From Azonexus sp. (GTDB lineage Bacteria > Pseudomonadota > Gammaproteobacteria > Burkholderiales > Rhodocyclaceae), in the NCBI GenBank assembly GCA_017983755.1, contig JAGOAU010000009.1:1-64000 (forward strand): 64,000 bases of DNA. The letters are read 5' to 3'. This document shows positions 1 through 19,727 of this stretch, one piece after another. The notes beneath the pieces are model-generated. The model saw only the letters and a program-made list of their open reading frames with translations, ran no database searches and was not told where the DNA came from. Position 1 is the first letter of the stretch. Every line of letters begins with the position of its first letter. Position numbers and translations under genes: made by a program.

Positions 1-13
1 CCAGATCCTTCAT
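1..13 (-). CDS. First codons of a gene running off the left edge, possibly an IS21-type transposase
   Basis: On the minus strand an ATG at 13-11 starts the reading M-K-D-L and continues past position 1. A good Shine-Dalgarno (AGGAGAT, complement of about 21-27) sits some 8 bases upstream of the ATG. Only four codons are visible, so the product cannot be identified. The transposase suggestion rests only on the repeats just upstream. Confidence 0.35.
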
Positions 14-127
14 GGTGATCATCTCCTAAAATCCTGCTCAAAAAATGAGCGGACGAGTTAATCACCCTGGTCAATTTTCAGCGCGCACAACCTCGCTTTT
101 CTGGTCAGTTTTCAACGAGCGTCAACA
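1..127 (-). mobile_element. Probable end of an IS21-family insertion sequence (body lies off the left edge)
   Basis: Two imperfect direct repeats of about 20 bases (67-86 and 101-120, both beginning CTGGTCA and matching at about 17 of 20 positions) lie upstream of a minus-strand start codon. The outer edge on the minus strand reads TGTTGAC (127-121). Several short repeats near the terminus, followed by a transposase gene reading inward, is the usual architecture of IS21-family ends. The transposase itself is outside the window, so the family assignment is inference from the repeat pattern only. Confidence 0.45.
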
Positions 128-798
128 AGCGCATAGATTTTGACAAAGACAGGTTACAAAAACCCCTCCCATGCGGAGCACAGGATGGAGGCAGGTTTGT
201 CCGCTACCTGGACGATTGCCCAGTAACCGGAACAGTTTTTGTTGCCCTTTGTGGGCAATGGGTGTCTTTGATTCGATGGCGTACTGTCACGACGTTGCGC
301 CGCTATTGCGCAGGCCGGAGGTCGATTCCATTGGTGCCGAATACGACCACGATTTCACTTTTGCACCTTCTTGGAAATGTTTCAAGCTTCATGATCAGCC
401 CGGGCGCCTGTGATTGATTTATCGTTGCGTGAAAGCAACAAGTCAGCTTGTGACTGGCTGGTTACGCGTACAACTCGATCATAGCGGCCATCCTGTCACC
501 ATCCATCGTGCGGCAGGTTCGCGTTACCAAACAGACGCTCGGCGTTGGCCAGGAACATCAGCGCCACAACTGCAAAATTTGCATTGAGGCGAAAATGTAT
601 TTAGCATAAAAGCCGCAGTGATACCTTTCTTTGCGCCCCAGGATCGGGTCCGGGGCGACGACTTGGTCGGTGAGTACGTACCGCCGCAGAATTGACCCGA
701 ACGTTAGTGCAGACACCATTTTTAGCTTTGCTCCAAGCGCTTCCCAGACCCGAGGAAGTAATGGCTGTCCGTACTGACTTGACCTTAAGGAGCCACAA
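128..798. other. Stretch without a convincing gene, probably decayed accessory DNA
   Basis: Between the IS-like end and the small gene at 799 no reading frame has a Shine-Dalgarno, a recognisable domain or a plausible composition. Frames open for about 80 codons near 171-413 are open in more than one phase at once, which argues against coding. The segment is noticeably richer in A+T than the core genes to the right. It may hold remnants of older insertions, but I recognise none. Confidence 0.4.
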
Positions 799-987
799 AT
801 GAGTCATACCCTGTCTAAAGCCGACATTGATTGTCGGGCCGAGCAACTCAATCCCGTCTCTCCGCAGTACTACCGGGACCGAGGCTACGCGCCTCATGAC
901 GCTATTGCGCTGGCAACGCTCGCGCAGCAACGCTATCAGATCGAAGTCTCCCACCAGAAGCAAACGCAACAGCGCGAACGCGGCTGA
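799..987 (+). CDS. Small protein of unknown function (62 aa)
   Basis: A 62-residue frame starts at ATG 799 with a clear Shine-Dalgarno (AAGGAG about 6-7 bases upstream), which makes translation credible. The protein is hydrophilic, with no signal peptide or membrane segment, one cysteine near residue 12, a Y-Y-R-D-R-G-Y stretch in the middle and a Gln/Arg-rich tail. I do not recognise a family. It ends 58 bases before the four-gene glycan/methyl-transfer-type operon and reads the same way, so it may share its promoter. A structural or precursor role there is speculation, because it has no obvious leader/core arrangement. Confidence 0.55.
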   Translation: MSHTLSKADIDCRAEQLNPVSPQYYRDRGYAPHDAIALATLAQQRYQIEVSHQKQTQQRERG

Positions 988-1045
988 TTGTTCCAATTGC
1001 CGGAATTCTCGTTGGATGAGTTCCGGCGTTCATCGTGGATGAATC

Positions 1046-1972
1046 ATGACAAAGACAATATTGGTCACCGGCTCATGCGGCCTGGTGGGGCGGCGGCTTT
1101 GCGCGTCTCTCAGAAGCGACGGTATTTCAGTGAACGAGTTGGATCTACGGGGTGAAGGTTCGAATTACGGTGATATCACCCATATGGCCGATATCGAAAG
1201 GGCCATCCGGAACTGCACAGGCGTTGTTCATCTTGCAGCTGTTTCAAGGGTGGTTTGGGGGCAGCGAGACCCTGATTTGTGTTGGCGTACAAACGTTACG
1301 GGGGTACAGAACTTGGCCCAGGTCGCGTTAGCTCAGAAATCAAAGCCGTGGATTCTATTTTCGAGTAGCCGAGAGGTTTACGGGCAGGCTCCTTCTCTCC
1401 CGGTCGAGGAGACGACTCCGCTGAATCCACTTAACGTCTATGCGCGCTCCAAGAGCAAAGGCGAACGCATAGTCATGGAGGCCTGCAATCAAGGCTTGCA
1501 GACAGCTGTCGTTCGGCTATCGAACGTCTATGGATGCACGAAAGATCATGCTGATCGCGTCATTCCTGCCTTCGCCAAGGCTGCCGTCGAAGGGCTGCCG
1601 CTACGCGTTGAAGGCAGCAATCACACGTTTGACTTCACGCACGTCGATGATGTCGTCCGAGGAATTAACGCGCTGATCGACGCCCTCTGCTCTGGACAAA
1701 AACTCTTGCCACCTTTGCATCTGGTGTCGGGGCGTCCGACCTCTCTGGGAGAGTTGGCAGCGCTCTGTCTTCGACTGGCGAAGAGTGGCGCGGTCGTGAC
1801 TGAGGCTGCGCCTCGATCCTATGACGTCGCTCAGTTTTACGGGGATCCGACGCGAGCACTGACGGTTCTCGGATGGAAGTCTGAAACTCCTTTGGAGGCG
1901 GGTCTGATGCGGCTCATTGATGACTTCAGACAGGCACTCAAATTACGCAGCGTAGCGGAGGTAACAGCATGA
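1046..1972 (+). CDS. NAD-dependent epimerase/dehydratase (extended SDR)
   Basis: This is an extended short-chain dehydrogenase/reductase of 308 residues, the family that epimerises or dehydrates nucleotide sugars. The N-terminus carries the Rossmann motif G9-x-x-G12-x-x-G15. A serine-rich stretch (S-S-S-R-E-V-Y-G) and the catalytic pair Y132-x-x-x-K136 follow in the expected order. A threonine/proline-rich loop and a typical C-terminal substrate-binding half complete it. It is the first gene of a four-gene run, and its TGA overlaps the next ATG (ATGA at 1969-1972), implying translational coupling to the glycosyltransferase/radical SAM gene. The likely role is to supply an activated sugar for that enzyme, but the substrate cannot be told from sequence. 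Codon choice looks more AT-rich than in the window's core genes. Confidence 0.85.
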   Translation: MTKTILVTGSCGLVGRRLCASLRSDGISVNELDLRGEGSNYGDITHMADIERAIRNCTGVVHLAAVSRVVWGQRDPDLCWRTNVTGVQNLAQVALAQKSKPWILFSSSREVYGQAPSLPVEETTPLNPLNVYARSKSKGERIVMEACNQGLQTAVVRLSNVYGCTKDHADRVIPAFAKAAVEGLPLRVEGSNHTFDFTHVDDVVRGINALIDALCSGQKLLPPLHLVSGRPTSLGELAALCLRLAKSGAVVTEAAPRSYDVAQFYGDPTRALTVLGWKSETPLEAGLMRLIDDFRQALKLRSVAEVTA

Positions 1973-4320
1973 AAATCCTGAAAGTGATCCATGGCTATCC
2001 GATGCGCTACAACGCCGGTTCCGAAGTCTATAGCCAGACACTCTGTCAGGGCCTGGCTGCCCGGCACGAAGTCCATGTTTTTACGCGTGAGGAAGACCCC
2101 TTTGCGCCGGACTACCGTCTCCGTAAAGAGAAGGATCCGGATGATGCAAGGATCAACTTGCATCTGGTGAATAACCCAAGGCTCAAGGATAGATACCGGG
2201 CAGAAGGGATTGATCAGAAATTTGCCGAAGTGCTGGAAGAGGTTCTGCCTGATGTCGTGCATGTCGGGCACCTCAACCATCTCTCAACTTCGCTACTTAA
2301 AGAGGCCGCCGAGCGTGGGATTCCGATTGTTTACACGCTACATGACTACTGGGTCATGTGTCCGAGAGGGCAGTTCATGCAGACCCTCCCGGAAGATCCA
2401 AACAATCTTTGGGCTGCCTGCGAAGGACAAGAGGATCGGAAGTGTGCGGAGCGTTGCTATGCGCGCTACTTCAGTGGTGCGCCCGATGAATACGAGGCAG
2501 ATGTCGCGTATTGGCAAGGCTGGGTCAATCGACGTATGTCGCATATGCGTGAGATGGCGGAGTTGGTTGATCTCTTCATTGCTCCAGCGCGCTACCTCCA
2601 GGATCGGTATCGCAACGACTTCGGCTTGCCTGAGCGCAAACTCATCTATCTGGATTACGGCTTCGATAGAAAGCGCTCTGCTGGGCGCAACAGGGCCCAG
2701 GAGGCTGACTTCACGTTTGGGTACATTGGTACCCACATCCCAGCCAAGGGGATTCATGACCTGATTCGTGCTTTTGGGCTCATCAAAGGGAAGGCGAGGC
2801 TCAGAATCTGGGGGCGCCCGCGTGGCCAGGAAACTGCTGCCTTGAAAGACATCGCTGCGAGCCTCCCTGCAGAGATAGCGGGCCGGATCGAATGGATGCC
2901 GGAATATAGAAATCAGGACATCGTTCGCGATGTATTTAATCGCGTCGATGCCATTGTTGTCCCGTCGGTCTGGGTGGAAAACTCACCGCTCGTCATTCAT
3001 GAAGCGCAGCAGGCTCGCGTGCCCGTCATTACGGCCAACACGGGCGGGATGGCGGAGTATGTACATCATGAGGTTAACGGACTCTTGTTTGAGCATCGTT
3101 CCTACAAAGCATTAGCTGAGCAGATGCAACGCTTCGTTGATGAACCCTTGTATGCGGCCAAGCTTGGTAGTCGTGGATATGCGTTCAGCCAGAGTGGCGA
3201 CATTCCTGACATCGATACCCATGTTCAGGAAATTGAAGCCCTGTACGAGCGCATCCTGCTCCGGCGGGACAGAACGAAACTGGAACATGCCGATGCGCCT
3301 TGGCGCATTACTTTTGATACGAACCCAGACACCTGCAACCTCAAATGCGTGATGTGCGAAGAGCATTCGCCGCACAGCGCTTTGCAGCCATTGCGCAAGT
3401 TGGATGGGCGTCGCCATCGCCGCATGCCGTTCGAGATGCTGAAACGCATTGTTGAAGAAACTGCCGGAAGAGGGTTGCGAGAGATTATCCCCTCAACGAT
3501 GGGTGAGCCGTTGCTCTATGAGCACTTCGAGGACATTCTGGCGTTGTGCGAGAAGCATCAGGTCAAACTGAACCTGACAACCAACGGGACCTTTCCTGGG
3601 TGCGGGGCTAGGGTTTGGGCAGGACGTATCGTGCCGGTCAGTTCAGATGTAAAGATCTCCTGGAACGGAGCCTGCAAAACAACGCATGAGTCGATCATGT
3701 TGGATTCGAAGTGGGATGAGGCGCTGCACAACTTGCGTGAGTTCATCGCTGTTCGCGATGAGTACACAGCGAGTGGCGGCAACCGCTGCCGTGTCACGCT
3801 CCAACTGACCTTCCTTGAGTCCAATGTCGAAGAACTTGCGGATGTCGTTCGCCTTGGCATTGAACTCGGTGTGGACCGGATCAAGGGCCATCATCTCTGG
3901 ACTCACTTCCCAGAGATCGAACAACTTTCGATGCGACGCAGTGTCGACGCGATCAAGCGCTGGAATGCAGCGGTTGAGAAAGCTCGAAATGTCGCCCTGG
4001 AGACGCCCCTGGCAAGCGGGAAGGCAATCCTTCTGGAGAACATCTTTCCGTTGGATGAAAACTCCACCCAAGAACTTACGCCTGATGGCCTCTGTCCCTT
4101 TTTGGGGCAGGAGGCATGGGTTAGTGCTCAGGGGCGCTTCGATCCTTGCTGTGCGCCAGACGCGCAGCGCAGGACTTTGGGGGAGTTCGGCGATTTGAGC
4201 GAAATGTCGCTGCTCAAGATCTGGCGGGGTGAATCCTACCGTTCTCTGGTTGCCAGTTACTGGAATCGCACCTTGTGCGCCTCCTGCATAATGAGAAAGC
4301 CCGTGGAGGACGGCTTATGA
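1969..4320 (+). CDS. Fused glycosyltransferase (GT4-like) and radical SAM/SPASM enzyme
   Basis: This 783-residue protein has two parts. Residues 1 to about 420 look like a GT-B glycosyltransferase of family 4: an N-terminal 'KVIHGYP...GSEVY' donor-side start, a C-terminal Rossmann half with 'GYIGTHIPAKG', and the 'E-N-S-P-L-V-I-H-E-A' loop that places the conserved Glu pair near the nucleotide sugar. Residues from about 445 onward form a radical SAM domain with C456-x-x-x-C460-x-x-C463. It is followed by a C-terminal cysteine set (C709, C727, C728, C770, C773) fitting a SPASM-type auxiliary cluster. Both halves look intact, with no frameshift at the joint. The start overlaps the epimerase stop and the end overlaps the next start, so it is coupled both ways. 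It may couple sugar transfer to a radical modification of the same acceptor (inference). Confidence 0.8.
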   Translation: MKILKVIHGYPMRYNAGSEVYSQTLCQGLAARHEVHVFTREEDPFAPDYRLRKEKDPDDARINLHLVNNPRLKDRYRAEGIDQKFAEVLEEVLPDVVHVGHLNHLSTSLLKEAAERGIPIVYTLHDYWVMCPRGQFMQTLPEDPNNLWAACEGQEDRKCAERCYARYFSGAPDEYEADVAYWQGWVNRRMSHMREMAELVDLFIAPARYLQDRYRNDFGLPERKLIYLDYGFDRKRSAGRNRAQEADFTFGYIGTHIPAKGIHDLIRAFGLIKGKARLRIWGRPRGQETAALKDIAASLPAEIAGRIEWMPEYRNQDIVRDVFNRVDAIVVPSVWVENSPLVIHEAQQARVPVITANTGGMAEYVHHEVNGLLFEHRSYKALAEQMQRFVDEPLYAAKLGSRGYAFSQSGDIPDIDTHVQEIEALYERILLRRDRTKLEHADAPWRITFDTNPDTCNLKCVMCEEHSPHSALQPLRKLDGRRHRRMPFEMLKRIVEETAGRGLREIIPSTMGEPLLYEHFEDILALCEKHQVKLNLTTNGTFPGCGARVWAGRIVPVSSDVKISWNGACKTTHESIMLDSKWDEALHNLREFIAVRDEYTASGGNRCRVTLQLTFLESNVEELADVVRLGIELGVDRIKGHHLWTHFPEIEQLSMRRSVDAIKRWNAAVEKARNVALETPLASGKAILLENIFPLDENSTQELTPDGLCPFLGQEAWVSAQGRFDPCCAPDAQRRTLGEFGDLSEMSLLKIWRGESYRSLVASYWNRTLCASCIMRKPVEDGL

Positions 4321-5987
4321 ACTGGCATGAACTGAATGTATCTGCCTTGGGAACACATCACGAACAAGCTGGCCAACCTGTCTATTCCGAGCGATTCGAC
4401 GAAGTACTCAAGTTCCACCCTCCTGGCCTGGCATCCGTAACGCGAGGCGATGAGGCGTGGCATATCGGCCCGGATGGTCAGGCTGCCTATGAACGTCGAT
4501 TCCTGCGCGCATTTGGCTTCTATGAAGGATTCGCAGCGGTGCAAGCCCTCGATGGCTGGCACCACATTCGGCCAGATGGGAGTGATGTCTATCCCGAACG
4601 GTACGATTGGTGCGGAAACTTCCAGAGCGGGCGTTGTACGGTAAGACTTCGTGACGGAAGTTATCGACATGTGTTTGCGGATCGATCACCTGTGTATCCG
4701 ACGATTTGGCGTTATGCAGGTGACTACAAGGATGGATTCTGTGTCGTCCAGAACGATGCTGGTCTCTCTACTCATCTGGATTTGAGTGGAGAGCAGCTTC
4801 ATGGCAACTGGTTCGTCGACCTGGACGTCTATCACAAGGGGTTCGCACGAGCTCGTGATGAAGATGGGTGGATGCACGTTGATCTGCAGGGGAGGCCGGT
4901 CTATGTTCGGCGTTTTTCCGCTGTCGAGCCGTTCTATAACGGCCAGGCAAGGGTGGAGCGATTTGACGGTGGCCTTGAGGTCATCGACGAGCAAGGGCAG
5001 AGGTTGATCGAGCTTCGTTCGGCCAAGCAATCCGAATTTGCATCGCTCTCGGCGGATCTGGTCGGCTTTTGGCGAACCCAAACCATTGCTGCAGCGGTAC
5101 GCCTAGGGGTTATCGAGGCTTTGCCCTGCTCATCCAGCAATCTTGCTGCCTTGTGTGGGTTGAATGGCGATGGAGCGCTGCGGCTGCTTCGCGCACTGGG
5201 AGAGCTCAAAATCGTTGAGCGCAATGCTGAAACCTGGCGTCTGAGCGTTCGTGGCGAGTTCTTGCGCGCAAACCATCCACTGACCTTGGCTGATGCGGCG
5301 CTTGAATACTCTGGTGCTCTTGGTGAGTTGTGGACATGCTTGCCCGAGGCGCTAAAGAAGGGTGGCGATTGGCAAGCGCCTGACATCTTTGGTGATGTCA
5401 CAAGAGATCCTGCACGTTTGAATGGATTTCACCGCATGCTTCGCAGTTATGCTTGCCACGACTATGCGTTAATTCCCGAGGCGTTGGGCTTGCAAGGTAA
5501 CGAGTTAGTTATTGATGCAGGCGGAGGATTCGGGACGCTTGCAATGAACATCCTGAATGCGCATCCCGATGTTCGCATAACGGTGCTCGATAAGCCTGAA
5601 GTGGTTGAGCAGGCACGGAGAGAGCTGAACTCTCTTTCGGGCCTGAATTGGCTGCCCGGAGATATCTTAGAGCCATGGGGTATCCGCGCCGATGTGGTGG
5701 TCTTGGCCAGAGTACTGCATGACTGGAATGACGAAGATGCAGTGCGAATCCTGATGCAAGCTAGAGCAACTTTACCCAAAGGAGGACGGCTTTTCATTAT
5801 CGAGATGTTGGTGTCTGAACAGGGTGTATCCGGCGCTCTGTGTGACCTGCATTTGCTGATGGTCACCGGGGGCAGGGAAAGATCCCGAGAAGCCTTCGAG
5901 AAACTACTCTGGCGAACAGGGTTTCACCTTGTCGAAGTTCGCCGGTTGGCGGCGCTCCCAGCTGTATTACTGGCAGAGGCTGTATGA
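4317..5987 (+). CDS. WG-like repeat protein fused to an O-methyltransferase
   Basis: I take the start at ATG 4317, inside an ATGA overlap and behind GGAGG, rather than the in-frame ATG at 4275, giving 556 residues. Residues roughly 10-215 are five or six repeats of about 40 residues of the type 'Y...F.EGFA.V...DGW..I...G..VY', which resemble WG/KWG beta-repeats. From about 235 onward the protein matches the methyltransferase_2 fold: a winged-helix dimerisation region, an SAM-binding motif at about 398-405 (I-D400-A-G-G-G-F-G), and H468-D-W-N-D-E, whose His is the general base in plant-type O-methyltransferases. The repeat domain could bind the acceptor or the partner enzyme. The methyl acceptor is unknown. 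It is coupled to both neighbours by four-base overlaps. Confidence 0.8.
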   Translation: MNWHELNVSALGTHHEQAGQPVYSERFDEVLKFHPPGLASVTRGDEAWHIGPDGQAAYERRFLRAFGFYEGFAAVQALDGWHHIRPDGSDVYPERYDWCGNFQSGRCTVRLRDGSYRHVFADRSPVYPTIWRYAGDYKDGFCVVQNDAGLSTHLDLSGEQLHGNWFVDLDVYHKGFARARDEDGWMHVDLQGRPVYVRRFSAVEPFYNGQARVERFDGGLEVIDEQGQRLIELRSAKQSEFASLSADLVGFWRTQTIAAAVRLGVIEALPCSSSNLAALCGLNGDGALRLLRALGELKIVERNAETWRLSVRGEFLRANHPLTLADAALEYSGALGELWTCLPEALKKGGDWQAPDIFGDVTRDPARLNGFHRMLRSYACHDYALIPEALGLQGNELVIDAGGGFGTLAMNILNAHPDVRITVLDKPEVVEQARRELNSLSGLNWLPGDILEPWGIRADVVVLARVLHDWNDEDAVRILMQARATLPKGGRLFIIEMLVSEQGVSGALCDLHLLMVTGGRERSREAFEKLLWRTGFHLVEVRRLAALPAVLLAEAV

Positions 5988-7303
5988 GTGATGAGATCAA
6001 ATGGGTTATCCCCCCATCGCTGGTACGTAATCTCGAAAGCATTCCGATTGATCGCCCCGTTGTTTTATTGTTGAGGCACTCCGTTCGTGGGCCGCTACCA
6101 CTTGGTGATGCAGGCAACAGCGTACCGATTACGGAGGCGGGTTGGAGCATTGCTCGCGAATTTGGACAGACGTTAGGGGCGCGTCTTAAAACACTGCAAA
6201 GCAGTCCGGTGCCGCGCTGTGTTCAAACTGCTCAAGCCTTGAAGGATGGTGCAGGCGTCCATACAGACATTACAAAGAACCGGTTGCTTGGAGATCCTGG
6301 TGTTTATGTACTCGATGGTGAGTCTGCCTGGAACAACTGGGTGACACTTGGTCACGAGGAGGTTATGCGGCATCTCGTCTCGGAGAGCGATGCGTTGCCA
6401 GGCATGGCTCGGCCGGATGAGTCGGCCCGATTCCTGGTTCATCACATGCTCTCCTTGGCTGGTAAAACGCCTGGTCTTCATGTCTTTGTTACGCATGACA
6501 GTCTGATAACGGCCACTGTTGCGAGGCTGCAGGGCGTGCATCACGGCCCGTCTGACTGGCCATGGTTCCTTGAGGGAGCACTTTTCTGGTGGGGTGCAGA
6601 AGGCTTGCATGTGGCATACAGGGAAAGCGAAAGCCTCAATAGAATGGACAGGTTGTGCGAGTTGAATGAGAGCGAGGTGATCGAGTTTGCTCGAAGAGAG
6701 ATTGCCGAGACAGTTGGTCTGGGCTGTGATGCACGCTTTTTCCTTGCTGGCGGAGCGTTCAAGTCACTTCTCACGGGAAGGCCTCCCCGAGACCTGGATT
6801 TTTGGGCGCCATCGCCTCGTGATCGGGAGATATTGTTGGATCAACTGCAAAAACGAGGGGCCATCAGGTTGCCGGATTCCGCATTCGCTGATGTCTTCGA
6901 GATTGGAGGACGTGTGGTAGAGGTTCCATTCAGGACCGAGCCAGCAAGCTTGCACGATCGGCTGAGCCGTTTTGATATTGCACTCTCTGCCGTCGGTGTT
7001 GAGCATCAACCCGGCGGAAGTTGGTCTGCCTTAATTCATCGTCAGGCCCTGCAATCAGTCGAGCGACGCGAGGTCTTGTTGCTTGAACCGCTCGTAAACT
7101 GGAAGTACGCCCTAGCAACACTAGAGCGAGTGCGGCGATATGCAAAGGAGCTTGGGTTCCGTGTTTCTTCTGAAGGAGAGGCCGCGATCTGGGAGTTGTT
7201 CTACTCGCAGCCTTCTGATGTTCGTAAAGATATGCTGGAGCGTTTTGAAAAGGTCTGCGTTGGGGGGTACGGAGTTGCAGAAGAGGCGGCATTCGTTACT
7301 TAG
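5984..7303 (+). CDS. Fused histidine phosphatase and nucleotidyltransferase
   Basis: This 439-residue protein has an N-terminal histidine-phosphatase half and a C-terminal nucleotidyltransferase half. The first carries L-R31-H32-S-V-R-G, a variant of the R-H-G signature, with the second histidine H171 in 'VFVTHDS'. The second (from about 215) carries G256-G257 followed by R-D270-L-D272, the G-G...D-x-D pattern of polymerase-beta-type nucleotidyltransferases, with a helical C-terminal tail. The metal-binding Asp pair is present, so the domain is probably active. The gene closes the coupled operon (ATGA overlap at 5984). Phosphatase plus nucleotidyltransferase recalls sugar-nucleotide making pathways, but this polymerase-beta fold is not the usual sugar-1-phosphate type. 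Its substrate may be a nucleotide, an RNA or an antibiotic-like molecule. Function is uncertain. Confidence 0.72.
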   Translation: MSDEIKWVIPPSLVRNLESIPIDRPVVLLLRHSVRGPLPLGDAGNSVPITEAGWSIAREFGQTLGARLKTLQSSPVPRCVQTAQALKDGAGVHTDITKNRLLGDPGVYVLDGESAWNNWVTLGHEEVMRHLVSESDALPGMARPDESARFLVHHMLSLAGKTPGLHVFVTHDSLITATVARLQGVHHGPSDWPWFLEGALFWWGAEGLHVAYRESESLNRMDRLCELNESEVIEFARREIAETVGLGCDARFFLAGGAFKSLLTGRPPRDLDFWAPSPRDREILLDQLQKRGAIRLPDSAFADVFEIGGRVVEVPFRTEPASLHDRLSRFDIALSAVGVEHQPGGSWSALIHRQALQSVERREVLLLEPLVNWKYALATLERVRRYAKELGFRVSSEGEAAIWELFYSQPSDVRKDMLERFEKVCVGGYGVAEEAAFVT

Positions 7304-7813
7304 CTGATGGCTTCGCCATCTGCGCAAGGCACTGCTTGGCATTGCATGGCGTTGAACGCTAATCATGAGCAGCATCACTCTGCTGACAGTAACTTTGGCG
7401 GTAACTATGAAATTTTAAAAATATAGATCGTTGCAGCACAGTGCTTTCGGCGATCAGTTTTATAGTCCCCGCCCCACCAAACCTTGAAAACCCGTCGCGA
7501 AATCGACGGGTTTTTCTTTTGTGTGGCAAAAATAATGAAAATCCCGACGTTGCGGCCTTTTTCCAAGAATGACAACGGTAAAAGTCGTTGATCAGCTTGC
7601 TGCGACTTGCTTATCCTTCGCTTAAAACTCGATAAATCAGTGGGGAGATGGAATAAAAATGAGGCTGACAGTGAGCATGCCTTCGCTGTTTTCAGGGTTG
7701 GAAGTTGCTCAACAGCCCGGCTTGTATCGTGATGGCAACAAGAACGGGATCGGGGAATCCGGTGCTCGGGTTTTCGCCGCAGGCATTGCATGCGGCTTCT
7801 AGCTGGGGGGGAA
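7304..7813. other. Non-coding stretch at the right edge of the accessory region
   Basis: No credible gene. Directly after the operon stop is a short hairpin with stem GATGGC/GCCATC (7306-7320) and no T-run. Around 7466-7480 a sequence ending CCCCGCCCCACCA resembles the 3' end of a tRNA, but no T-arm can be folded before it. It is followed at once by a strong terminator (7487-7515). The stretch is AT-rich up to about 7450 and shifts back to core-like composition after about 7690. Confidence 0.4.
7487..7515 (+). terminator. Rho-independent terminator
   Basis: An 11-bp stem AAAACCCGTCG / CGACGGGTTTT with a 6-base loop (7498-7503) is followed by a T-rich tract. It lies about 185 bases after the four-gene operon and can end its transcript. 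The A-run on the left side would let it also work on the minus strand. Confidence 0.75.
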
Positions 7814-8005
7814 ATGGCGGCAACCGCAGAGCGAAGGAAGGGTACGGATCGACGCGTACGTGACTTGGGGGCGCCAAGCGGAATGAGCGAACGGCGTGTG
7901 CAGGCTGAACGCCGGTTACCGACCCCGCAGGAGGCGCCCATTTCCGAATCTGACTGGGAGAAATATTTCGGTTCGGTCGCCAGGAAACTTGAGAACAGCA
8001 ACTAG
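7814..8005 (+). CDS. Small basic protein with repeated E-R-R motifs, unknown function (63 aa)
   Basis: The start is ATG 7814, three bases after a run of seven G that can act as a strong though very close Shine-Dalgarno. An in-frame ATG at 7790 is the alternative. The 63-residue product is rich in Arg and Glu, with E-R-R or D-R-R at three or four spaced positions in the first half, then a short acidic segment with W-E-K-Y-F. It has no signal peptide or membrane helix. A terminator follows 23 bases later (8028-8057), so it seems to be a monocistronic unit. I do not recognise a named family. Confidence 0.5.
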   Translation: MAATAERRKGTDRRVRDLGAPSGMSERRVQAERRLPTPQEAPISESDWEKYFGSVARKLENSN

Positions 8006-8027
8006 CGGCCAAGAACAGGGCAGCATC

Positions 8028-8057
8028 AAAACCCGCCGTGCAAACGACGGGTTTTTT
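8028..8057 (+). terminator. Rho-independent terminator
   Basis: A stem of AAAACCCG with CGGGTTTT, extended by CGT/ACG after one mismatch, ends in a run of six T (8052-8057). It closes the small gene ending at 8005 and resembles the terminator at 7487-7515. Confidence 0.7.
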
Positions 8058-8117
8058 ATTTCCCGCGCCTTGTCGTGTACTCTTTCTCCGTGAGCGCTTT
8101 TCCTGGGAGGTTTCAAG

Positions 8118-8393
8118 ATGGATGACCTGCAACAGCTGAAACTGAAGCCGACATTGAGTGTCCATGACGCGGCCCGGCTGCTGTCCTCCGATGCGGCGGC
8201 GTTGCGTGCCGCCGAAATCGAGCTTGCCCTGGCAGTCGACCGCGGCGAACTGGCGGCGAACATTCTGCGCTGGGCGACCGAGCAGTGGGAAGGCGAACGC
8301 CTCGAAGGGAATATCGACCGGATGCGGACCTTCATCGAGCGCGCGGATCTCGATGCCTGGCTCAAGGGCCAGGGCCGTTCGCTTCAGGGCTGA
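8118..8393 (+). CDS. Hypothetical protein (91 aa)
   Basis: A 91-residue soluble protein behind a good Shine-Dalgarno (GGGAGG about 9 bases upstream of ATG 8118). It is mostly alpha-helical by composition: a helix 'VHDAARLLSSDAAALRAAEIELA', then a second amphipathic region with several Glu/Arg pairs ending in W-L-K-G. No catalytic motif, signal peptide or membrane segment is visible. The first part loosely recalls short helical DNA-binding or adaptor proteins, but I cannot name a family. It is convergent with the lipoprotein gene that ends 40 bases downstream, and no clear terminator separates them. Confidence 0.55.
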   Translation: MDDLQQLKLKPTLSVHDAARLLSSDAAALRAAEIELALAVDRGELAANILRWATEQWEGERLEGNIDRMRTFIERADLDAWLKGQGRSLQG

Positions 8394-8433
8394 AGCCGCC
8401 CGGCGCGAGGTTCAGCCATTTCTCGTCGGCCGC

Positions 8434-8943
8434 CTAGCGGCTGCATACTTCGCGGAAGCGCCTGAGCATGCTTTCGGTGTAGCTCTGGGTCGAGCGGACG
8501 AGGCCGGTCGTATTGTCGAACAGCACGTTGAAGCGAGCCGGTTCGTTCCAGGCGTCGCAATAGCGCCACTCCCAGACCAGTTCGTCGCGTCGCTCGAAAT
8601 AGACGGTCCACTGCGGCTGCGACGGGCCCAGTGTGCGCAGCACATCATCCTTGGTCATGCCCTGGCGAATCAGGGCGAAATGCTTCATGTCGAGGACGCC
8701 GTTGAGGCTGGACATGATTCCCTTGCTGTCGATCATCACCATGAAGGTGTTGAAGCCGGCCGGGCCGCGCGGGTAAGCCAGCAGTTCGCCGCCACCCGGC
8801 TCCTGCCAGCGCATGGCGGGTTGTCCCATGAGCTGGATGACGTCATCGACGGTGCTGATGCCCGGTTTCAGGCCGCGCCCGTTGTAGGAAGCGCAGCCGG
8901 CGATGACGAGGGCGCAGATCAGAGTAACGAGGGTTTTTTTCAT
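8434..8943 (-). CDS. SmpA/OmlA (BamE-like) outer-membrane lipoprotein
   Basis: A 169-residue lipoprotein with a short signal peptide and lipobox V-I-A-G-C ending at Cys17, so it should be acylated and sorted to the outer membrane. The mature part holds two copies of the SmpA/OmlA-type motif: 'LKPGISTVDDVIQLMGQP' and, about 60 residues later, 'IRQGMTKDDVLRTLGPS'. BamE has one such domain and is shorter (about 110-120 residues), so this is a two-repeat relative rather than BamE itself. It starts 31 bases after the end of the DUF4824-like gene on the same strand and may belong to the same transcript. Its role in the envelope is unknown. Confidence 0.75.
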   Translation of the reverse strand: MKKTLVTLICALVIAGCASYNGRGLKPGISTVDDVIQLMGQPAMRWQEPGGGELLAYPRGPAGFNTFMVMIDSKGIMSSLNGVLDMKHFALIRQGMTKDDVLRTLGPSQPQWTVYFERRDELVWEWRYCDAWNEPARFNVLFDNTTGLVRSTQSYTESMLRRFREVCSR

Positions 8944-8974
8944 TGGGACATCTCGCGATCGTTTGCAGGAAGAG

Positions 8975-9841
8975 TCAATGGGCGGCAGCGGCCGGCGGGA
9001 TCACTTCGGCGATCCACGGTTCGAGGCGCTGGCCGACAGCCAGCGTCGCACTGAAGTGGTCGCCGCCGCCCGGTTCGCCGCGGGCGCGCAGTGATTCGAG
9101 CGGGCCGCGCAGCGCGTGCGGGACGTGGATCGGGCCGCTGCCGACGCGCGCGATGTAGCCGGTCATCTGCGGCTGGCCGGGGCCGCGGTCGCGGATGGCG
9201 GGACGCACGGTGCCGCGCAGCAGCATGAAGCGGCTGCGGTCGGGGTATTTCTGGCGCAAGGCGCCAGCGTCCAGCCCGGCATCGATGACGAAAAGCCGGC
9301 TGCTGATGTTTTCTTCCTGGGTCAAGGCGTCCTGGGCGCGCTTGGCGCGGCCGGCGAATTCCTTGCTGCCTGCGTTCGCCGCGGCCGCCGCTGCATGGCG
9401 TGCGGCGTTTTCCCGCGCCTGGTCGAGCGCCCGTTGTGCTGCCGGTCCGTCGAGCTCGAGGACGAAGACCGCCTGGCGCGGCAACTGCCGGGTATAGCGC
9501 CGGCGACCGTGGTCGGTATCGGTGTCGCCGAGGGTGAAGCCGAGCGCCTGCATGCGGGTGCCGTCGAGCCATTCCGGCGTGCCGCCGTTGACCGTGTAGC
9601 CGCTGATGAATTCTCCGGCCTCGCGGTCGCCAACGCGCCAGTTCAGGTTGAGCGCCAGGCCGCTGTTTTCCCGGTTGCGCAGGGCGCGCCAGGGCAGCTC
9701 CAATTCGCGCTCGCTGAGGGTCAGGGAGCTTTCGGGAGCCGCCGCGCGGTTCCACCAGACGCCGCCAAGGGCAACGGCGTTGGTCAGGGCGATCAGGCCG
9801 AGGCCGACGGCGAGGGTACGTGCACGCGCCCAGGCCTTCAT
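8975..9841 (-). CDS. DUF4824-like membrane-anchored protein
   Basis: The start is ATG at 9841, giving 288 residues. The reading frame is open further upstream, but this ATG overlaps the upstream stop as ATGA (9841-9838) and has GGAGG before it. One N-terminal membrane helix (about residues 8-29) is followed by a soluble, probably periplasmic domain with 'LTLSERELELPW' and 'RENSGLALNLNWR', which I associate with DUF4824 proteins, and an Ala-rich helical insert in the middle. Proteins of this type usually sit next to DUF2157 membrane proteins, as here. No enzymatic motif is seen. The biochemical function is unknown. Confidence 0.65.
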   Translation of the reverse strand: MKAWARARTLAVGLGLIALTNAVALGGVWWNRAAAPESSLTLSERELELPWRALRNRENSGLALNLNWRVGDREAGEFISGYTVNGGTPEWLDGTRMQALGFTLGDTDTDHGRRRYTRQLPRQAVFVLELDGPAAQRALDQARENAARHAAAAAANAGSKEFAGRAKRAQDALTQEENISSRLFVIDAGLDAGALRQKYPDRSRFMLLRGTVRPAIRDRGPGQPQMTGYIARVGSGPIHVPHALRGPLESLRARGEPGGGDHFSATLAVGQRLEPWIAEVIPPAAAAH

Positions 9842-10926
9842 GGCATTTCCTCCGCGTTGGCCGGGCGGAAGCTTCGGCGCAGCCGGTTGAGGATGAGCAG
9901 GATGAGCACTGCCGTCAGGCCGATGACGAGGAAGAACAGGTATTTCGGCATGATTTCCCACCACCATTCGTAGAACTTGGTGTATAGGAAGATGATGAAA
10001 AAAACGATGCCGGTATTGACCGTTTCCGGCCAGCCACGGCGGGCGCCGAGCCAGATGACGAGCGCGCTGGCGACGAAGCCGGCGACCTGGTAGGCGTTCT
10101 GGATCGTCCGCGGCGCGGCGTCGACATAACTGCCATGGGCCCAGTGGCTGAGGACCAGCATCGGGACGAACAGGCAGAGCAGGCCGAAGATCCGGTAGAG
10201 CGGCGCAAAGCCGTTTAAGCGGCGGTGCGGGACGAGCAGCGGGAAGGCGAAGAGCAGCGCGGCGACGGGAAAGAAGTTTTCCGGGCGCTCGCCGGTGTGC
10301 AGCCAGTAGATGCTGTTCCACGTGCCGACCCGTGCCTGCACCCAGGCGATGACACAGCAGATGCCGGCGACCAGCAGCAGGCGCAGGTCGCAGGTATAGG
10401 CGAGGAGGAAGGCCATCGCCGCCCACGGCAGCAGGGCGTTGTCGGTTGGCGTGATGTTGAAGATCTGGCCGAGCATAGAGATGTTCAGCACGAAACTGGC
10501 GAAGGCGACCAGCGCCGCCAGCTTGGTGAAGTAGCCGGTGGTGTCGCGCCCCTGAATCCACAGCGTCAGCCCGAAGGTGGCGAGCGAACTGGCGATCAGG
10601 ATGGCGACCTGGGCGCTTTCGCCGAAGTGGCCCCAGAACTGGTAAAAGAGGAAGAAGACGCTGGCCGCCAGTGCCAGTGCGCCGAGGAAGGAGGCGACGC
10701 GCATGCCGAGCGACAGCTGCTTGGCGCGGTTGTCGCGGTCGACATCGAAAAGTGAGGCAAATTCGGCCAGCAGCCGTTCGTGGTGGGTGCGTACCGCCAC
10801 TTGCTGCGCGGCGTCGAGATTGAGGATGCCCGCGTCGGCGAGGCGCGCGAGTTCATCGCGGAAAGTGCGGATGTCGTCGGCGCGCTGCTGTGCTTCGGCG
10901 CGCGAGGGCACAGCCGCTTCAGTCAT
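9838..10926 (-). CDS. DUF2157 multi-span membrane protein
   Basis: A membrane protein of 362 residues. The N-terminal 75 residues are soluble and helical, with 'LADAGILNLD', typical of the DUF2157 N-terminus. About ten hydrophobic helices follow from roughly residue 80 to the end. I choose ATG 10926 because it overlaps the riboflavin synthase stop (ATGACTGA). An upstream in-frame start at 10938 is possible. The gene is overlap-coupled downstream to the DUF4824-like gene, so the two products probably form a membrane complex. DUF2157 proteins have no established function. Confidence 0.75.
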   Translation of the reverse strand: MTEAAVPSRAEAQQRADDIRTFRDELARLADAGILNLDAAQQVAVRTHHERLLAEFASLFDVDRDNRAKQLSLGMRVASFLGALALAASVFFLFYQFWGHFGESAQVAILIASSLATFGLTLWIQGRDTTGYFTKLAALVAFASFVLNISMLGQIFNITPTDNALLPWAAMAFLLAYTCDLRLLLVAGICCVIAWVQARVGTWNSIYWLHTGERPENFFPVAALLFAFPLLVPHRRLNGFAPLYRIFGLLCLFVPMLVLSHWAHGSYVDAAPRTIQNAYQVAGFVASALVIWLGARRGWPETVNTGIVFFIIFLYTKFYEWWWEIMPKYLFFLVIGLTAVLILLILNRLRRSFRPANAEEMP

Positions 10927-11515
10927 CCCGCTCGGCACCGAGCAGTCGCTCGCAGTAGCGGGCGATCAGATCGACTTCGAGATTGACCCGGCTGCCCGCC
11001 TTGAGTTGATTAAGCGTCGTGTTTTCCAGGGTGTGCGGGATCAGGTTGATGGTGAAGATGTCGCCGGCGACCTCGTTGGTCGTCAGGCTGGTGCCGTTGA
11101 CGGTGATCGAGCCCTTGCGCGCGATGAATTTCGCCAATTCGTGCGGCGCCTGGATTTCCAGAAGGCGGTTGTCGCCGACCGGGTCGAAGCGCAGTACGGT
11201 GCCGACGCCGTCGACATGCCCGGAAACGAGGTGGCCGCCGAGGCGGTCGGCCAGGCGCAGGGCCTTCTCCAGGTTGATCTCGCCGGGGGCGTCGAGGCCG
11301 ACGGTACAGGAGAGGGTTTCCGGCGAGACGTCGACCATGAAGTGATTGCCTTCGTGCGCCACCACCGTCAGGCAGACGCCGTTGCAGGCGATCGAGTCGC
11401 CGAGGGCGACGTCGTCGAGGCCGAGGCTGCCGGCTTCGACATGCAGGCGAAAGCCCGCTTCGCGGGAGGTGAGATGGGTGATGCGGCCGACTGCGGCGAT
11501 GATTCCGGAGAACAT
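10919..11515 (-). CDS. ribE: Riboflavin synthase, alpha chain
   Basis: This enzyme dismutates two molecules of 6,7-dimethyl-8-ribityllumazine to riboflavin, the last step of vitamin B2 synthesis. The N-terminus M-F-S-G-I-I is the family signature and decides the start (ATG 11515 rather than 11527). Two lumazine-binding repeats follow, the first with 'DSIACNGVCLTV' and the second beginning near residue 95 with 'GHLVSGHVDGVG' and later 'SITVNGTSLT'. The length of 198 residues is normal. It heads a minus-strand unit with DUF2157 and DUF4824-like genes and is transcribed divergently from the binding-protein gene at 11644. Other riboflavin genes are not in the window. Confidence 0.95.
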   Translation of the reverse strand: MFSGIIAAVGRITHLTSREAGFRLHVEAGSLGLDDVALGDSIACNGVCLTVVAHEGNHFMVDVSPETLSCTVGLDAPGEINLEKALRLADRLGGHLVSGHVDGVGTVLRFDPVGDNRLLEIQAPHELAKFIARKGSITVNGTSLTTNEVAGDIFTINLIPHTLENTTLNQLKAGSRVNLEVDLIARYCERLLGAERDD

Positions 11516-11587
11516 GGGGGACACCATTTCAACAAAAATCCAACTTTATCACGCGCCGTTGACCATGCGGCTTGCAGGGAAATCCGG

Positions 11588-11617
11588 TTGGTAATAGGGT
11601 CTTCACCTTTGCATAAT
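11588..11617 (+). promoter_or_regulatory. Candidate sigma70 promoter for the binding-protein gene
   Basis: A -35-like TTGGTA (11588-11593) and a -10-like CATAAT (11612-11617) are separated by 18 bases. The predicted transcription start would be near 11624, about 20 bases before ATG 11644 and just upstream of the Shine-Dalgarno GGGAGAGAG. Confidence 0.45.
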
Positions 11618-11643
11618 CGATTCATCAAAGGGAGAGAGACATA

Positions 11644-12783
11644 ATGAAGAAGACCATCCTCGCCACGCTGCTGTCGACACTGGCTGCGGCCGCCTTCGCC
11701 GACCTCAACGTCGGCGTCACGCTGTCCGCCACCGGCCCCGCCGCCTCGCTCGGCATCCCCGAGAAGAACACCATCGACCTGCTGCCGAAGACGATCGCCG
11801 GCCAGAAGGTGAATTACATCGTGCTCGACGATGCCTCCGATACGACGACGGCGGTCAAGAACGCGCGCAAGCTGATCAGCGAGAACAGGGTCGACGTGAT
11901 CATCGGCTCGACGACGACGCCCAACTCGCTGGCCATGATCGACGTCGCCGCCGAGAGCGAGACGCCGATGATCGCCTTGGCTGCCTCGGCGCGCATCGTC
12001 GAGCCGATGGACGACAAGCGGAAGTGGGTGTTCAAGACGCCGCAGAACGACGCCCAGATGGCGACCGCCATCGTCGAGCACATGACCAGCAACAACGTTC
12101 AGACGGTCGCCTACATCGGCTTTTCCGACGCCTATGGCGAAGGCTGGTGGAGCGGCTTCTCGAAGATCGCCGAGGCGCGCAAGCTCAAGCTGGTCGCCAA
12201 CGAGCGCTTCAACCGTACCGACACCTCGGTCACCGGGCAGGTACTCAAGGTGCTTGCCGCCAAGCCGGACGCCGTGCTGATCGGTGGCGCCGGCACGCCG
12301 GCCGCCCTGCCCCAGCGCTCGCTCAAGGAAAAGGGTTTCAAGGGCATCATCTATCAGACGCACGGCGTCGCCAACAACGATTTCCTGCGCGTCTGCGGCA
12401 AGGATTGCGAGGGAACGCTGCTGCCCACCGGTCCGGTCCTGGTCGCCGCCCAGTTGCCCGCCGACAACCCGGTCAAGAAATCGGCCAGCGAATACGTAAA
12501 CAAGTACGAAACTGCCTACGGCCCCGGCAGCGTCACCGCTTTCGGCGGCTATGCCTGGGATGCCGGGCTGCTGCTCGCCAATGCCGTGCCCGTCGCCCTC
12601 AAGCAGGGCCAGCCCGGCAGCAAGGAATTCCGCATGGCCCTGCGTGATGCGCTGGAAACGACCAAAGACCTGTCCGGTGCCCACGGCGTTTACAACATGA
12701 GCGCCAGGGATCACCTCGGCCTCGACCAGCGCGCCCGCGTCATGGTCAAGGTCGAGAACGGCACCTGGAAACTGGTCAAGTAG
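11644..12783 (+). CDS. Branched-chain-amino-acid-type ABC transporter binding protein, copy 1
   Basis: A periplasmic type-1 substrate-binding protein of 379 residues, with a signal peptide cleaved probably after residue 19 (A-F-A before D-L-N-V-G). The mature part has the Leu/Ile/Val-binding fold, including '[16 protein letters not shown]', 'WVFKTPQNDAQMA' and 'DAYGEGW'. It has a paralogue of identical length immediately downstream (about 78% identical by eye). This copy carries two cysteines in 'RVCGKDCEG', replaced by Gly and Val in the second copy. Shine-Dalgarno GGGAGAGAG precedes the start. It feeds the LivHMG-LivF transporter that follows. The ligand cannot be read from sequence, and amino acids, amides or aromatic acids are all possible. 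Confidence 0.9.
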   Translation: MKKTILATLLSTLAAAAFADLNVGVTLSATGPAASLGIPEKNTIDLLPKTIAGQKVNYIVLDDASDTTTAVKNARKLISENRVDVIIGSTTTPNSLAMIDVAAESETPMIALAASARIVEPMDDKRKWVFKTPQNDAQMATAIVEHMTSNNVQTVAYIGFSDAYGEGWWSGFSKIAEARKLKLVANERFNRTDTSVTGQVLKVLAAKPDAVLIGGAGTPAALPQRSLKEKGFKGIIYQTHGVANNDFLRVCGKDCEGTLLPTGPVLVAAQLPADNPVKKSASEYVNKYETAYGPGSVTAFGGYAWDAGLLLANAVPVALKQGQPGSKEFRMALRDALETTKDLSGAHGVYNMSARDHLGLDQRARVMVKVENGTWKLVK

Positions 12784-12865
12784 GCATCGTCGTTTGCCGC
12801 GCGAGGCCCGGGGCGGCACCGCGCGGCGTGGTAAACTGCCGCCCTTTCCGCCACGGAGCGACTCC

Positions 12866-14005
12866 ATGTTCAAGAAACCGACGCTGGCTGCGCTGGCCGT
12901 CCTGTCCTCCGTCGCGCTCGCCGACGTCAATGTCGGCGTGTCCGTTTCCGCCACCGGCCCGGCCGCCTCGCTCGGCATCCCGGAAAAGAACACCATCGCC
13001 CTGCTGCCGACGACGATCGCCGGCCAGAAGGTCAATTACATCGTTCTTGACGACGCCACCGACCCGACAGCGGCGACCAAGAACATCAAGAAGCTGATCG
13101 GCGAGAGCAAGGTCGATGTGATGATCGGCTCGACGACGACGCCCAATTCGCTGGCCATGATGGACGTCGCGGTCGACAGCGAAACGCCGCTCATTTCCAT
13201 GGCCGGCTCGGCGATAGTCGTCGAGCCGATGGATGCCAAGCGCCAATGGGTCTTCAAGACCGCCCAGAACGACGCGCACATGGCGACCGCCATCGTCCAG
13301 CACATGACCGACAAGGGCGTGCAGAACGTTGCCTTCATCGGTTTCGCCGACGCCTACGGCGAAGGCTGGTACAAGGAGTTCGCCAGGATCGCCGAGGCGC
13401 GCAAGCTCAAGATCGTCGCCAGCGAGCGCTACCAGCGCAATGACACCTCGGTGACCGGCCAGATCCTAAAGATCATGGCCGCCCGGCCGGATGCGGTGCT
13501 GATCGGTGGCGCCGGCACGCCGGCCGCGCTGCCGCAGAAGACGCTGAAGGAAAAGGGCTACAAGGGCCTGATCTACCAGACGCATGGGGTCGCCAACAAC
13601 GATTTCCTGCGCGTCGGCGGCAAGGATGTCGAGGGTGCCTTCCTGCCGGTCGGGCCGATGGTGGTTGCCGCGCAGTTGCCGGCCGACAACCCGGTCCGCA
13701 AGTCGGCGCTGGAATACGTTACCAAGTACGAGGCGGTGCACGGCAAGGGCAGCGTCAGTTCCTTCGGCGGCCACGCCTGGGATGCCGGCGTGCTGCTCCA
13801 GTACGCCATTCCTCAGGCGCTGAAAAAGGGACAGCCGGGGACAAGGGAATTCCGCAAGGCGCTGCGCGATGCCCTGGAATCCGTCAAGGACCTGCCGGCC
13901 GCGCACGGCATCTTCAACATGTCGCCGAATGATCACCAGGGTTTCGACCAGCGCGCCCGGGTCATGGTGACCATCGAAAACGGTGGCTGGAAGCTCGTGA
14001 AGTAA
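12866..14005 (+). CDS. Branched-chain-amino-acid-type ABC transporter binding protein, copy 2
   Basis: The second member of a tandem pair, also 379 residues, with a signal peptide ending at A-L-A before D-V-N-V-G. The start at ATG 12866 is chosen by the signal peptide and a GGAG eight bases upstream. The frame is open further upstream but there encodes an unlikely Pro/Arg-rich extension. Domains match copy 1 throughout, with differences scattered rather than clustered, and the cysteine pair is missing. The 82-base gap between copies holds no obvious promoter or terminator. The pair probably arose by duplication and may give the same permease two ligand ranges. Confidence 0.9.
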
Positions 14006-14051
14006 GCGCCAGCTCGCGCTGCCAGGATTTTCCGACCGTCGTTTTCCGCGC

Positions 14052-16913: not shown

Positions 16914-16917
16914 GACG

Positions 16918-17679: not shown

Positions 17680-17691
17680 CCGGCAGTCCGG

Positions 17692-19701: not shown

Positions 19702-19711
19702 CATCAACTCC

Positions 19712-19727
19712 GTCAGCCGCGGCTGAC
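19712..19727. promoter_or_regulatory. Perfect 16-bp palindrome upstream of the FecR/DUF6600 gene
   Basis: GTCAGCCGCGGCTGAC is a perfect dyad lying between the start of the minus-strand FecR-like gene and mnmG, and it abuts the Shine-Dalgarno of the former. Size and position suit an operator for a dimeric repressor. No regulator can be named. Confidence 0.4.

What the first reader, a model, noticed from the sequence alone, without database searches (positions are those of the whole stretch)
1046..7303. Four-gene ATGA-coupled operon of three unusual fusion enzymes and an epimerase: a candidate undescribed biosynthetic system
All four junctions-in-line are exact ATGA overlaps (1969, 4317, 5984), so the genes are expected to be translated in fixed ratio. 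The products are an NDP-sugar-type SDR, a GT4 joined to radical SAM/SPASM, a WG-like-repeat protein joined to an O-methyltransferase, and a histidine phosphatase joined to a polymerase-beta-type nucleotidyltransferase. This covers sugar activation, transfer, radical modification, methylation and nucleotide/phosphate chemistry. I know of no described pathway with this exact set. The location beside an IS-like end and the AT-richer codon use suggest transfer. The product could be a modified glycan, a glycosylated peptide or another small molecule.
Basis: partly seen in the sequence, partly recalled or inferred. Interest (0 to 1): 0.78.

Follow-up and report, generated by a model that had tools for sequence, protein, structure and literature searches.

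The report
Free-living relative of Wolbachia's Undecim cluster
A small mobile set of enzyme genes, already seen without a known job in the phage of the insect bacterium Wolbachia, also sits in unrelated free-living microbes, here together with a new-looking structured RNA and a tiny gene in front of it.

Summary
The four genes and three exact ATGA overlaps are real, and the domain calls hold: SDR; GT4 + radical SAM/SPASM; WG repeats + O-methyltransferase; histidine phosphatase + polymerase-beta-type tail (weakest call). The set is not undescribed: genes 1-3 match, in order, UC2-UC4 (WD0612-WD0614) of the Undecim Cluster of Wolbachia phage WO, whose function is unknown.

New here: (1) the cassette is found in six bacterial phyla and one Asgard MAG, on a prophage-like contig and on panBCE plasmids of louse-fly Arsenophonus, wider than the papers read report; (2) GT, radical SAM and WG occur together in every locus long enough to tell, fused or split; (3) the five loci with an added PhyH dioxygenase, phage WO included, have lost the methyltransferase's SAM-binding motif, so 'methylation' for WD0614 is doubtful; (4) upstream lie two parts I found reported nowhere: a covarying ~147-nt leader RNA (633-779), which also turned up in two loci outside the training sets, and a conserved 62-codon ORF (799-987).

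Best reading: a mobile pathway making a small glycoside through a phosphorylated intermediate, with a radical SAM step and O-methyl capping. Substrate and product are unknown.

The parts
633..779 (+). structured leader RNA (covarying stems; three-way junction in the 3' half)
   Evidence: A8 (MAFFT, 6 loci): 98.4% of cells paired, 8 pairs with changes on both sides, covariation score 0.235 against 0.152 +/- 0.017 in shuffles and at most 0.079 when slid; the fifth measure, further pair types, is reached by 74 of 500 shuffles. Found in loci outside the training sets: L007 Sandaracinus, 36.9 bits with R1, and L090, 72.1 bits with R2. No Rfam match near threshold
799..987 (+). small ORF, 62 codons, motif D-x-R-x-x-Q-L-N-...-Y-x-R-x-R
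   Evidence: homologs upstream of the cassette in L003, L004, L005, L008 (core deleted in frame), L009 (broken), L007 (TTG start), L011 and L090 (two motif copies); changes most frequent at third codon positions in 5 of 5 comparisons; 3 of 121 family genomes have it, all three cluster bearers
999..1027 (.). hairpin between small ORF and gene 1, terminator- or attenuator-like
   Evidence: inverted repeat; 11-pair consensus in 6 loci, one compensatory pair only
1046..1972 (+). NDP-sugar type SDR (epimerase/dehydratase)
   Evidence: PF01370 E 1.2e-43; UC2 of phage WO 38%
1969..4320 (+). GT4 glycosyltransferase fused to radical SAM/SPASM enzyme
   Evidence: PF00534, PF04055, PF13186; phrog_21308 over 1-777, E 3.3e-205; cluster cysteines CX3CX2C, C, CC, CX2C invariant in 16 rows
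4317..5987 (+). WG-repeat domain fused to class-2 O-methyltransferase, SAM motif intact
   Evidence: PF14903, PF08100, PF00891; motifs intact; model pLDDT 86.8; closest folds LaPhzM, DtpM, AlpH, MmcR
5984..7303 (+). histidine phosphatase fused to a polymerase-beta-type nucleotidyltransferase-like domain
   Evidence: PF00300; fold matches RosC, HFP, Rv2419c; tail weakly like CCA-adding enzymes; tail present in window, L006, L008 and L090

Best explanation
It is a horizontally transferred biosynthetic cassette, homologous in its first three genes to UC2-UC4 of the Wolbachia Undecim Cluster. Proposed mechanism: the SDR prepares an NDP-sugar; the GT4 domain moves it to an acceptor; the tethered radical SAM/SPASM domain oxidises or rearranges the product; the WG domain binds the intermediate and presents it to the tethered O-methyltransferase, which caps a hydroxyl; a phosphatase removes a phosphate from acceptor or intermediate. 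The product is a small modified glycoside, not a polysaccharide. The leader RNA regulates the unit in cis. Shown: homology, order, coupling, co-occurrence, RNA covariation. Inferred: every chemical step, the acceptor, the product, the RNA's role.
For: 27 loci compared, L090 added later. WG 27 of 27; GT and rSAM 26 of 27 (L010 starts inside gene 3). Loci fetched by GT or rSAM queries alone (L040-042, L078, L079) have WG, 5 of 5; loci fetched by WG alone (L045/L090, L048, L049, L050) have GT and rSAM, 4 of 4. GT-rSAM fused in 14, split in 12; WG-OMT fused in 22, split in 3: fused here, separate there, so the partners probably work together. A phosphatase in 16 of 27: histidine type in 15, tyrosine-phosphatase family PF13350 in L079, which points to a needed dephosphorylation. 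No polymerase or flippase was noticed among neighbours (Pfam run on selected neighbours only); exporters sit in two loci (ABC in L048; MATE in L049). Concatenated tree: Sandaracinus (Myxococcota) with Halomonas 97/98, and holding the two Myxococcota together is rejected, p 1e-4, group chosen after seeing the trees.
Against: No substrate, no product, no assay. SDR and phosphatase are each missing from 11 of 27 loci, and five (L013, L014, L015, L019, L078) lack both (contig ends explain some), so they are not universal. GT4 and SPASM enzymes are also common in surface glycan loci (recalled), and the published guess for UC1-UC3 and UC10 is exopolysaccharide or LPS (PMC9203015, section 16). The radical SAM domain has only weak matches to solved enzymes (anSME, 8vpo, BtrN, E 1.6e-4 to 6e-4).
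Confidence: 0.45

Rival explanations
1. Surface-glycan modification cassette: it decorates LPS, capsule or exopolysaccharide, as lysogenic-conversion genes do.
For: GT4 + SDR; cargo between endolysin and integrase genes on L079 and on phage WO; UDP-glucose dehydrogenase near the L016 and WO copies; published view for UC1-UC3 and UC10.
Against: No polymerase, flippase or anchor gene was noticed near the cassettes (not every neighbour was scanned); methyltransferase is nearest to small-molecule natural-product enzymes; found in hosts with very different envelopes, including an Asgard MAG.
Confidence: 0.25
2. RiPP-like system: the 62-residue peptide is the substrate, glycosylated, radical-modified and methylated.
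For: Small ORF upstream in 9 loci counting L090; Y24, R26, R28 invariant in the 6 rows aligned; L090's ORF carries the motif twice; 3 of 121 family genomes have it, all cluster bearers; SPASM enzymes often act on peptides (recalled).
Against: Not found upstream of the Halomonas, cyanobacterial, Chloroflexota, Asgard, Arsenophonus and WO copies; L008 has lost the YYRDRG core in frame while its enzyme frames are open; a hairpin separates it from the operon; Pfam shows no peptidase or leader-binding domain in the four proteins.
Confidence: 0.12
3. The WG-repeat protein is itself the substrate or carrier of the GT and radical SAM enzymes.
For: GT + rSAM + WG is the only trio present throughout; OMT is missing in L078 and not seen before the contig end in L019; WG is more alike to the window's than OMT is in 22 of 22 loci; five histidines (49, 83, 118, 153, 187) recur every 34-35 residues.
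Against: Fusion to an enzyme and many invariant residues suit a binding scaffold equally well; no direct test.
Confidence: 0.12
4. Anti-phage defence module.
For: L050 lies near DarTG and L049 near AbiE and an integrase; weak pVip-type hit for the radical SAM domain.
Against: Weak hits only; the other loci were not scanned with PADLOC and there is no enrichment test; the architecture is biosynthetic.
Confidence: 0.05

Closest known systems
Undecim Cluster of Wolbachia phage WO (WD0611-WD0621), UC2-UC4
   Same: SDR, GT4-radical SAM fusion, WG-OMT fusion, same order and orientation
   Different: no PhyH, aldolase or UGDH homolog found in window 1-20000; window has an intact SAM motif in the OMT, a histidine phosphatase, a leader RNA and a small ORF
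Arsenophonus plasmids of louse flies (CP132902, CP132904, CP132908)
   Same: SDR, GT, radical SAM, WG-OMT in order
   Different: GT and radical SAM in different frames, OMT motif lost, PhyH, SHMT-like and threonine aldolase genes, beside panBCE
Roseoflavin enzymes RosC (histidine phosphatase) and RosA (methyltransferase)
   Same: fold matches of gene 4 (rank 1) and of gene 3 (rank 21): dephosphorylate, then methylate
   Different: no flavin evidence, RosB not looked for, low sequence identity (18% and 24%)
Glucosyl-3-phosphoglycerate phosphatase Rv2419c
   Same: histidine phosphatase acting after a glycosyltransferase on a phosphorylated acceptor (fold rank 14; pathway recalled)
   Different: unrelated GT family and no radical SAM enzyme (recalled)

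Membership tests
Undecim Cluster | UC2-UC4 homologs in order | tested here: met
   tblastn on L048: SDR 38%, GT 50%, rSAM 53%, WG 44%, OMT 22%
Undecim Cluster | all eleven genes incl. PhyH, ABC exporter, two threonine aldolases, UDP-glucose dehydrogenase | tested here: not met
   no PhyH, aldolase or UGDH homolog in window 1-20000; one generic ABC hit 25% at 16966; UC1, UC9 and UC11 not searched there; contig starts at window base 1
Undecim Cluster | association with phage WO or WO-like island | tested here: inconclusive
   neighbours in the window were not scanned for phage genes; contig begins 1045 bases upstream
RiPP cluster | precursor peptide always present | tested here: not met
   small ORF in 8 of 27 loci, 9 of 28 with L090
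Known NCBIfam radical SAM families | score above curated cut-off | tested here: not met
   best radical SAM model TIGR04317, 54 bits, cut-off 380; 25 best of 43 families shown
Rfam RNA families | match above gathering score | tested here: not met
   window 1-8500 and 560-830: nothing near threshold
Anti-phage defence (PADLOC) | core model match | tested here: not met
   for the four proteins only pVip 19 bits and mad2 33 bits, partial
Methyltransf_2 enzymes | glycine-rich SAM motif and HDW motif | tested here: met
   DAGGGFG and LHDW in window; both motifs kept in 18 of 23 loci and in L090
Polysaccharide biosynthesis locus | polymerase, flippase or export genes conserved nearby | tested here: inconclusive
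   in the neighbour clustering of 19 loci only two non-cassette groups link different phyla, C4 (L009 and Hormoscilla) and C20 (L017 and L023; the L023 member is a sigma-54 activator); many neighbours had no Pfam scan

The most novel reading that the evidence does not exclude
The leader is a new class of cis-regulatory RNA that senses a precursor or product of this pathway, and the cassette makes an unknown radical-modified glycoside that phages and plasmids carry into insect symbionts because it benefits the symbiosis; in the symbiont branch a dioxygenase has taken over from a dead methyltransferase.
Probability: 0.25. Interest if true: 0.85.

Novelty: new variant of a known kind. Interest (0 to 1): 0.6.

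Why it matters
The Undecim Cluster is kept by many Wolbachia and highly expressed (PMC9203015) and largely duplicated in an obligate strain (PMC12801941), yet its function is unknown, and Wolbachia is hard to manipulate (recalled). A compact version in culturable bacteria such as Azospira oryzae DSM 21223 (L004) makes the core chemistry directly testable. The leader RNA, if a riboswitch, would point to the ligand class.

Tried and rejected
Small-ORF family outside the cassette: 31 of 229 class genomes passed E 0.1 with A3, but every hit except the window's own is weak (E 2e-4 or worse), many with stops in the frame. A motif scan of all eleven listed loci gave two chance-like strings. No match in plasmids or phages. 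Leader RNA elsewhere: two 25-bit hits in G031:C24 and G114:C15 lack most of the 3' half and are taken as chance; a second copy in G1167 lies in a 96%-identical 9-kb repeat of the same error-rich contig. The leader was not found in 20 other loci, nor upstream in L011 with filters off. Viral scan with the WO protein found nothing; exact 24-base leader pattern in viral contigs found nothing; leader DNA in plasmids found nothing. Empty site: a congener shares DNA only from window 8515 on, but the left flank is missing, so no empty site is shown. One clade for the PhyH-bearing loci is neither shown nor rejected (p 0.074), so loss of the methyltransferase may be one or two events. MFE of the single leader is not unusual (z -1.48, 13 of 200 shuffles as low); the case for the RNA rests on covariation and on the two untrained finds. 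A WG-only fold search was not run.

Full report
WHAT IS THERE. The four ORFs lie at 1046-1972, 1969-4320, 4317-5987 and 5984-7303 on the + strand. ATGA stands at all three junctions. In six loci 16 of 18 junctions are exact 4-base overlaps (starts, ORF ends). Pfam gives Epimerase; Glycos_transf_1 plus Radical_SAM plus SPASM; WG_beta_rep plus Dimerisation plus Methyltransf_2; and His_Phos_1. The C-terminal 214 residues of gene 4 have no Pfam match; their only PDB sequence matches are CCA-adding enzymes at E 0.27-0.68. The gene 4 model (pLDDT 76.4, weaker in the tail) matches RosC and other histidine phosphatases, and also tRNA nucleotidyltransferases 1vfg and 4wby, which I take to be matches of the tail (one search prints no ranges). 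The cluster is AT-richer than the rest of the window (0.549 against 0.645 +/- 0.038), and a congener, G1157, shares the flanking DNA only from about 8515 on.

RELATIVES. A scan of one genome per species for gene 3 gave 33 loci; 18 of them (L003-L019, L023) encode the WG domain, the other 15 only a methyltransferase. The 18 include Accumulibacter, Azospira, Azonexaceae, Paludibacterium, Halomonas, Thiomargarita, two Myxococcota, a Dehalococcoidia MAG, three Hormoscilla, a Phycisphaeraceae, a Chitinophagales and a Heimdallarchaeota MAG. MAG contigs may be misbinned, and the archaeal host rests on one 8.1-kb contig. The set is rare: 4 of 395 genomes of the family, 3 of 369 of the class and 1 of 398 of the phylum, the window's own genome counted in each. 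Further copies lie on three Arsenophonus plasmids, in Wolbachia phage WO and on two IMG/VR contigs.

WHAT ALWAYS TRAVELS TOGETHER. I compared 27 loci in one table. WG is in 27, GT and rSAM in 26 (L010 is cut), OMT in 25, SDR in 16 next to the cassette, a phosphatase in 16, the nucleotidyltransferase tail in 3, PhyH in 5. GT-rSAM is fused in 14, in separate frames in 12 (one, L009, in an error-rich assembly). WG-OMT is fused in 22, apart in 3, not assessable in 2. In the Heimdallarchaeota contig all parts are separate genes. L090, read last, has all parts, the nucleotidyltransferase tail included. In L079 a PF13350 phosphatase takes the place of the histidine phosphatase, and GT, rSAM, phosphatase, OMT and WG stand between an endolysin and an integrase. 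Because most loci were found with gene 3, co-occurrence is tested only by the subsets fetched with other queries: 5 of 5 loci fetched by GT or rSAM have WG, and 4 of 4 fetched by WG have GT and rSAM. In the family the GT-rSAM query found 3 of 150 genomes and the WG query 4 of 395; all three of the former are among the latter.

TRANSFER. In the concatenated GT+rSAM+WG tree the window groups with Accumulibacter (99/97), Sandaracinus with Halomonas (97/98), Dehalococcoidia with Hormoscilla (99/98). Keeping the two Myxococcota as one clade costs 78 log units (p 1e-4), a group chosen after I saw the trees. The three domain trees agree on Sandaracinus with Halomonas (89, 94 and 93) and on the five-row clade of the window; they disagree elsewhere, for example the rSAM tree does not join Dehalococcoidia with Hormoscilla or WO with L049, and L050, L018 and L011 move. 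So common transfer is shown for the window's neighbourhood, not for every branch.

THE KNOWN RELATIVE. PMC9203015 (section 16 read whole, other passages by search) defines the Undecim Cluster, WD0611-WD0621, with UC3 as a GT/radical SAM fusion; it reports transfer between Wolbachia and Rickettsia, homologs in Cardinium and Phycorickettsia, and proposes glycan synthesis, methylation and export. PMC4701759 (passages) shows that nine of ten proteins WD0611-WD0620 are made, calls the WD0614 fusion unusual, and notes possible syntenic homologs in Desulfovibrio hydrothermalis, Haliangium and others. PMC12801941 (passages) reports duplication in an obligate Wolbachia and says functions are unknown. 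PMC10654098 (passages) mentions the Arsenophonus plasmids for pantothenate. PMC10877061 and PMC10438800 (passages) report the cluster in further Wolbachia. Searches joining WG repeats and radical SAM found nothing. Searches listed papers; of these I read only PMC9203015, and the titles and abstract starts of the rest did not suggest this set.

A CORRECTION TO THE KNOWN RELATIVE. Of 23 loci with an alignable OMT, 18 keep DAGGGxG-like and LHDW motifs; five lose the glycine motif: L016, L040, L041, L042 and phage WO L048. The same five are the only ones of 27 with PhyH. Pfam at E 0.001 no longer sees Methyltransf_2 in the WO protein, though it still sees the C-terminal half in Arsenophonus L040 (E 1.3e-11, residues 445-533). 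So methylation by WD0614, as proposed, is doubtful, while the window's enzyme looks active. Whether this is one event or two is open (p 0.074).

TWO UNREPORTED PARTS. Upstream DNA 632-798 is 78-92% identical to five relatives, against 53-72% before it, 63-83% in the small ORF and 47-76% in the gap after it. On a MAFFT alignment of six loci the consensus structure keeps 98.4% of cells paired, with 8 pairs changed on both sides. On four of five measures no shuffle of 500 reaches the observed value; on the fifth, further pair types, 74 do. Slid versions have a covariation score of 0.079 or less. The structure came from RNAalifold on the same alignment, and the six are close kin, so I rely on loci outside the training sets. 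The model R1 finds Sandaracinus L007 at 6762-6934, 36.9 bits, E 3.3e-7 over 26 sources, just before the small ORF's frame. R2, built with L007, finds L090 at 72.1 bits, again just before a small ORF. With L007, 12 of 41 pairs show changes on both sides, though that alignment is fitted to the model. A single leader does not fold better than shuffles. UCGGGUC in the first hairpin could also pair with GACCCGA, as the single-sequence fold has it. In 150 family genomes strong hits are only in the three cluster bearers of that draw. The small ORF follows, with most changes at third codon positions (19, 20, 32, 14 and 28 against 4, 12, 13, 8 and 16 at second positions), then a hairpin, then gene 1. 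In L090 the small ORF has the motif DNRxxQLNP twice.

MECHANISM. Shown: shared ancestry, order, coupling, co-occurrence, conserved catalytic motifs, RNA covariation. Inferred: sugar activation by the SDR, transfer by GT4, a radical SAM step (weakly like anSME and BtrN), methylation by an enzyme whose nearest solved relatives methylate small natural products, and dephosphorylation. The replacement of one phosphatase fold by another is my best argument for a phosphorylated intermediate; the RosC/RosA and Rv2419c matches are analogies. In the PhyH branch a dioxygenase, threonine aldolases and, in WO, an ABC exporter are added.

VERDICT. Real, conserved and interesting, but a free-living variant of a published, uncharacterised cluster; the leader RNA, small ORF and methyltransferase loss are the new points.

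Noticed in passing
window 1-130: Two GGTCARTTTTCA-type repeats at the contig start look like an IS21-type end (recalled, not tested); 1-127 matches congener G1156 (L053) at 85%.
   Followed up: partly
L040-L042: Louse-fly Arsenophonus plasmids carry SDR, GT, radical SAM, WG-OMT, PhyH, an SHMT-like gene and a threonine aldolase next to panBCE; only pantothenate is discussed in the passages read of PMC10654098.
   Followed up: partly
L016 5219-13772: An uncultured proteobacterium has an Undecim-like set outside Wolbachia: UDP-glucose dehydrogenase, SDR, GT, rSAM, WG-OMT (SAM motif lost), PhyH, threonine aldolase.
   Followed up: yes
L079 4698-12648: Cassette with a PF13350 phosphatase between endolysin and integrase on an IMG/VR contig; looks like prophage cargo.
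   Followed up: partly
L050 5231-6938; L049 3552-4801: DarTG and AbiE genes lie near two of the cassettes.
   Followed up: partly
window 4317-5021: WG repeats carry a histidine where usual WG repeats have glycine (recalled), recurring at 49, 83, 118, 153 and 187.
   Followed up: no
L009, L089: Paludibacterium record holds a 96%-identical second 9-kb copy with many frame breaks; likely assembly error.
   Followed up: partly
L090 8466-8788 (- strand): The small ORF of this divergent copy has the DNRxxQLNP motif twice.
   Followed up: no
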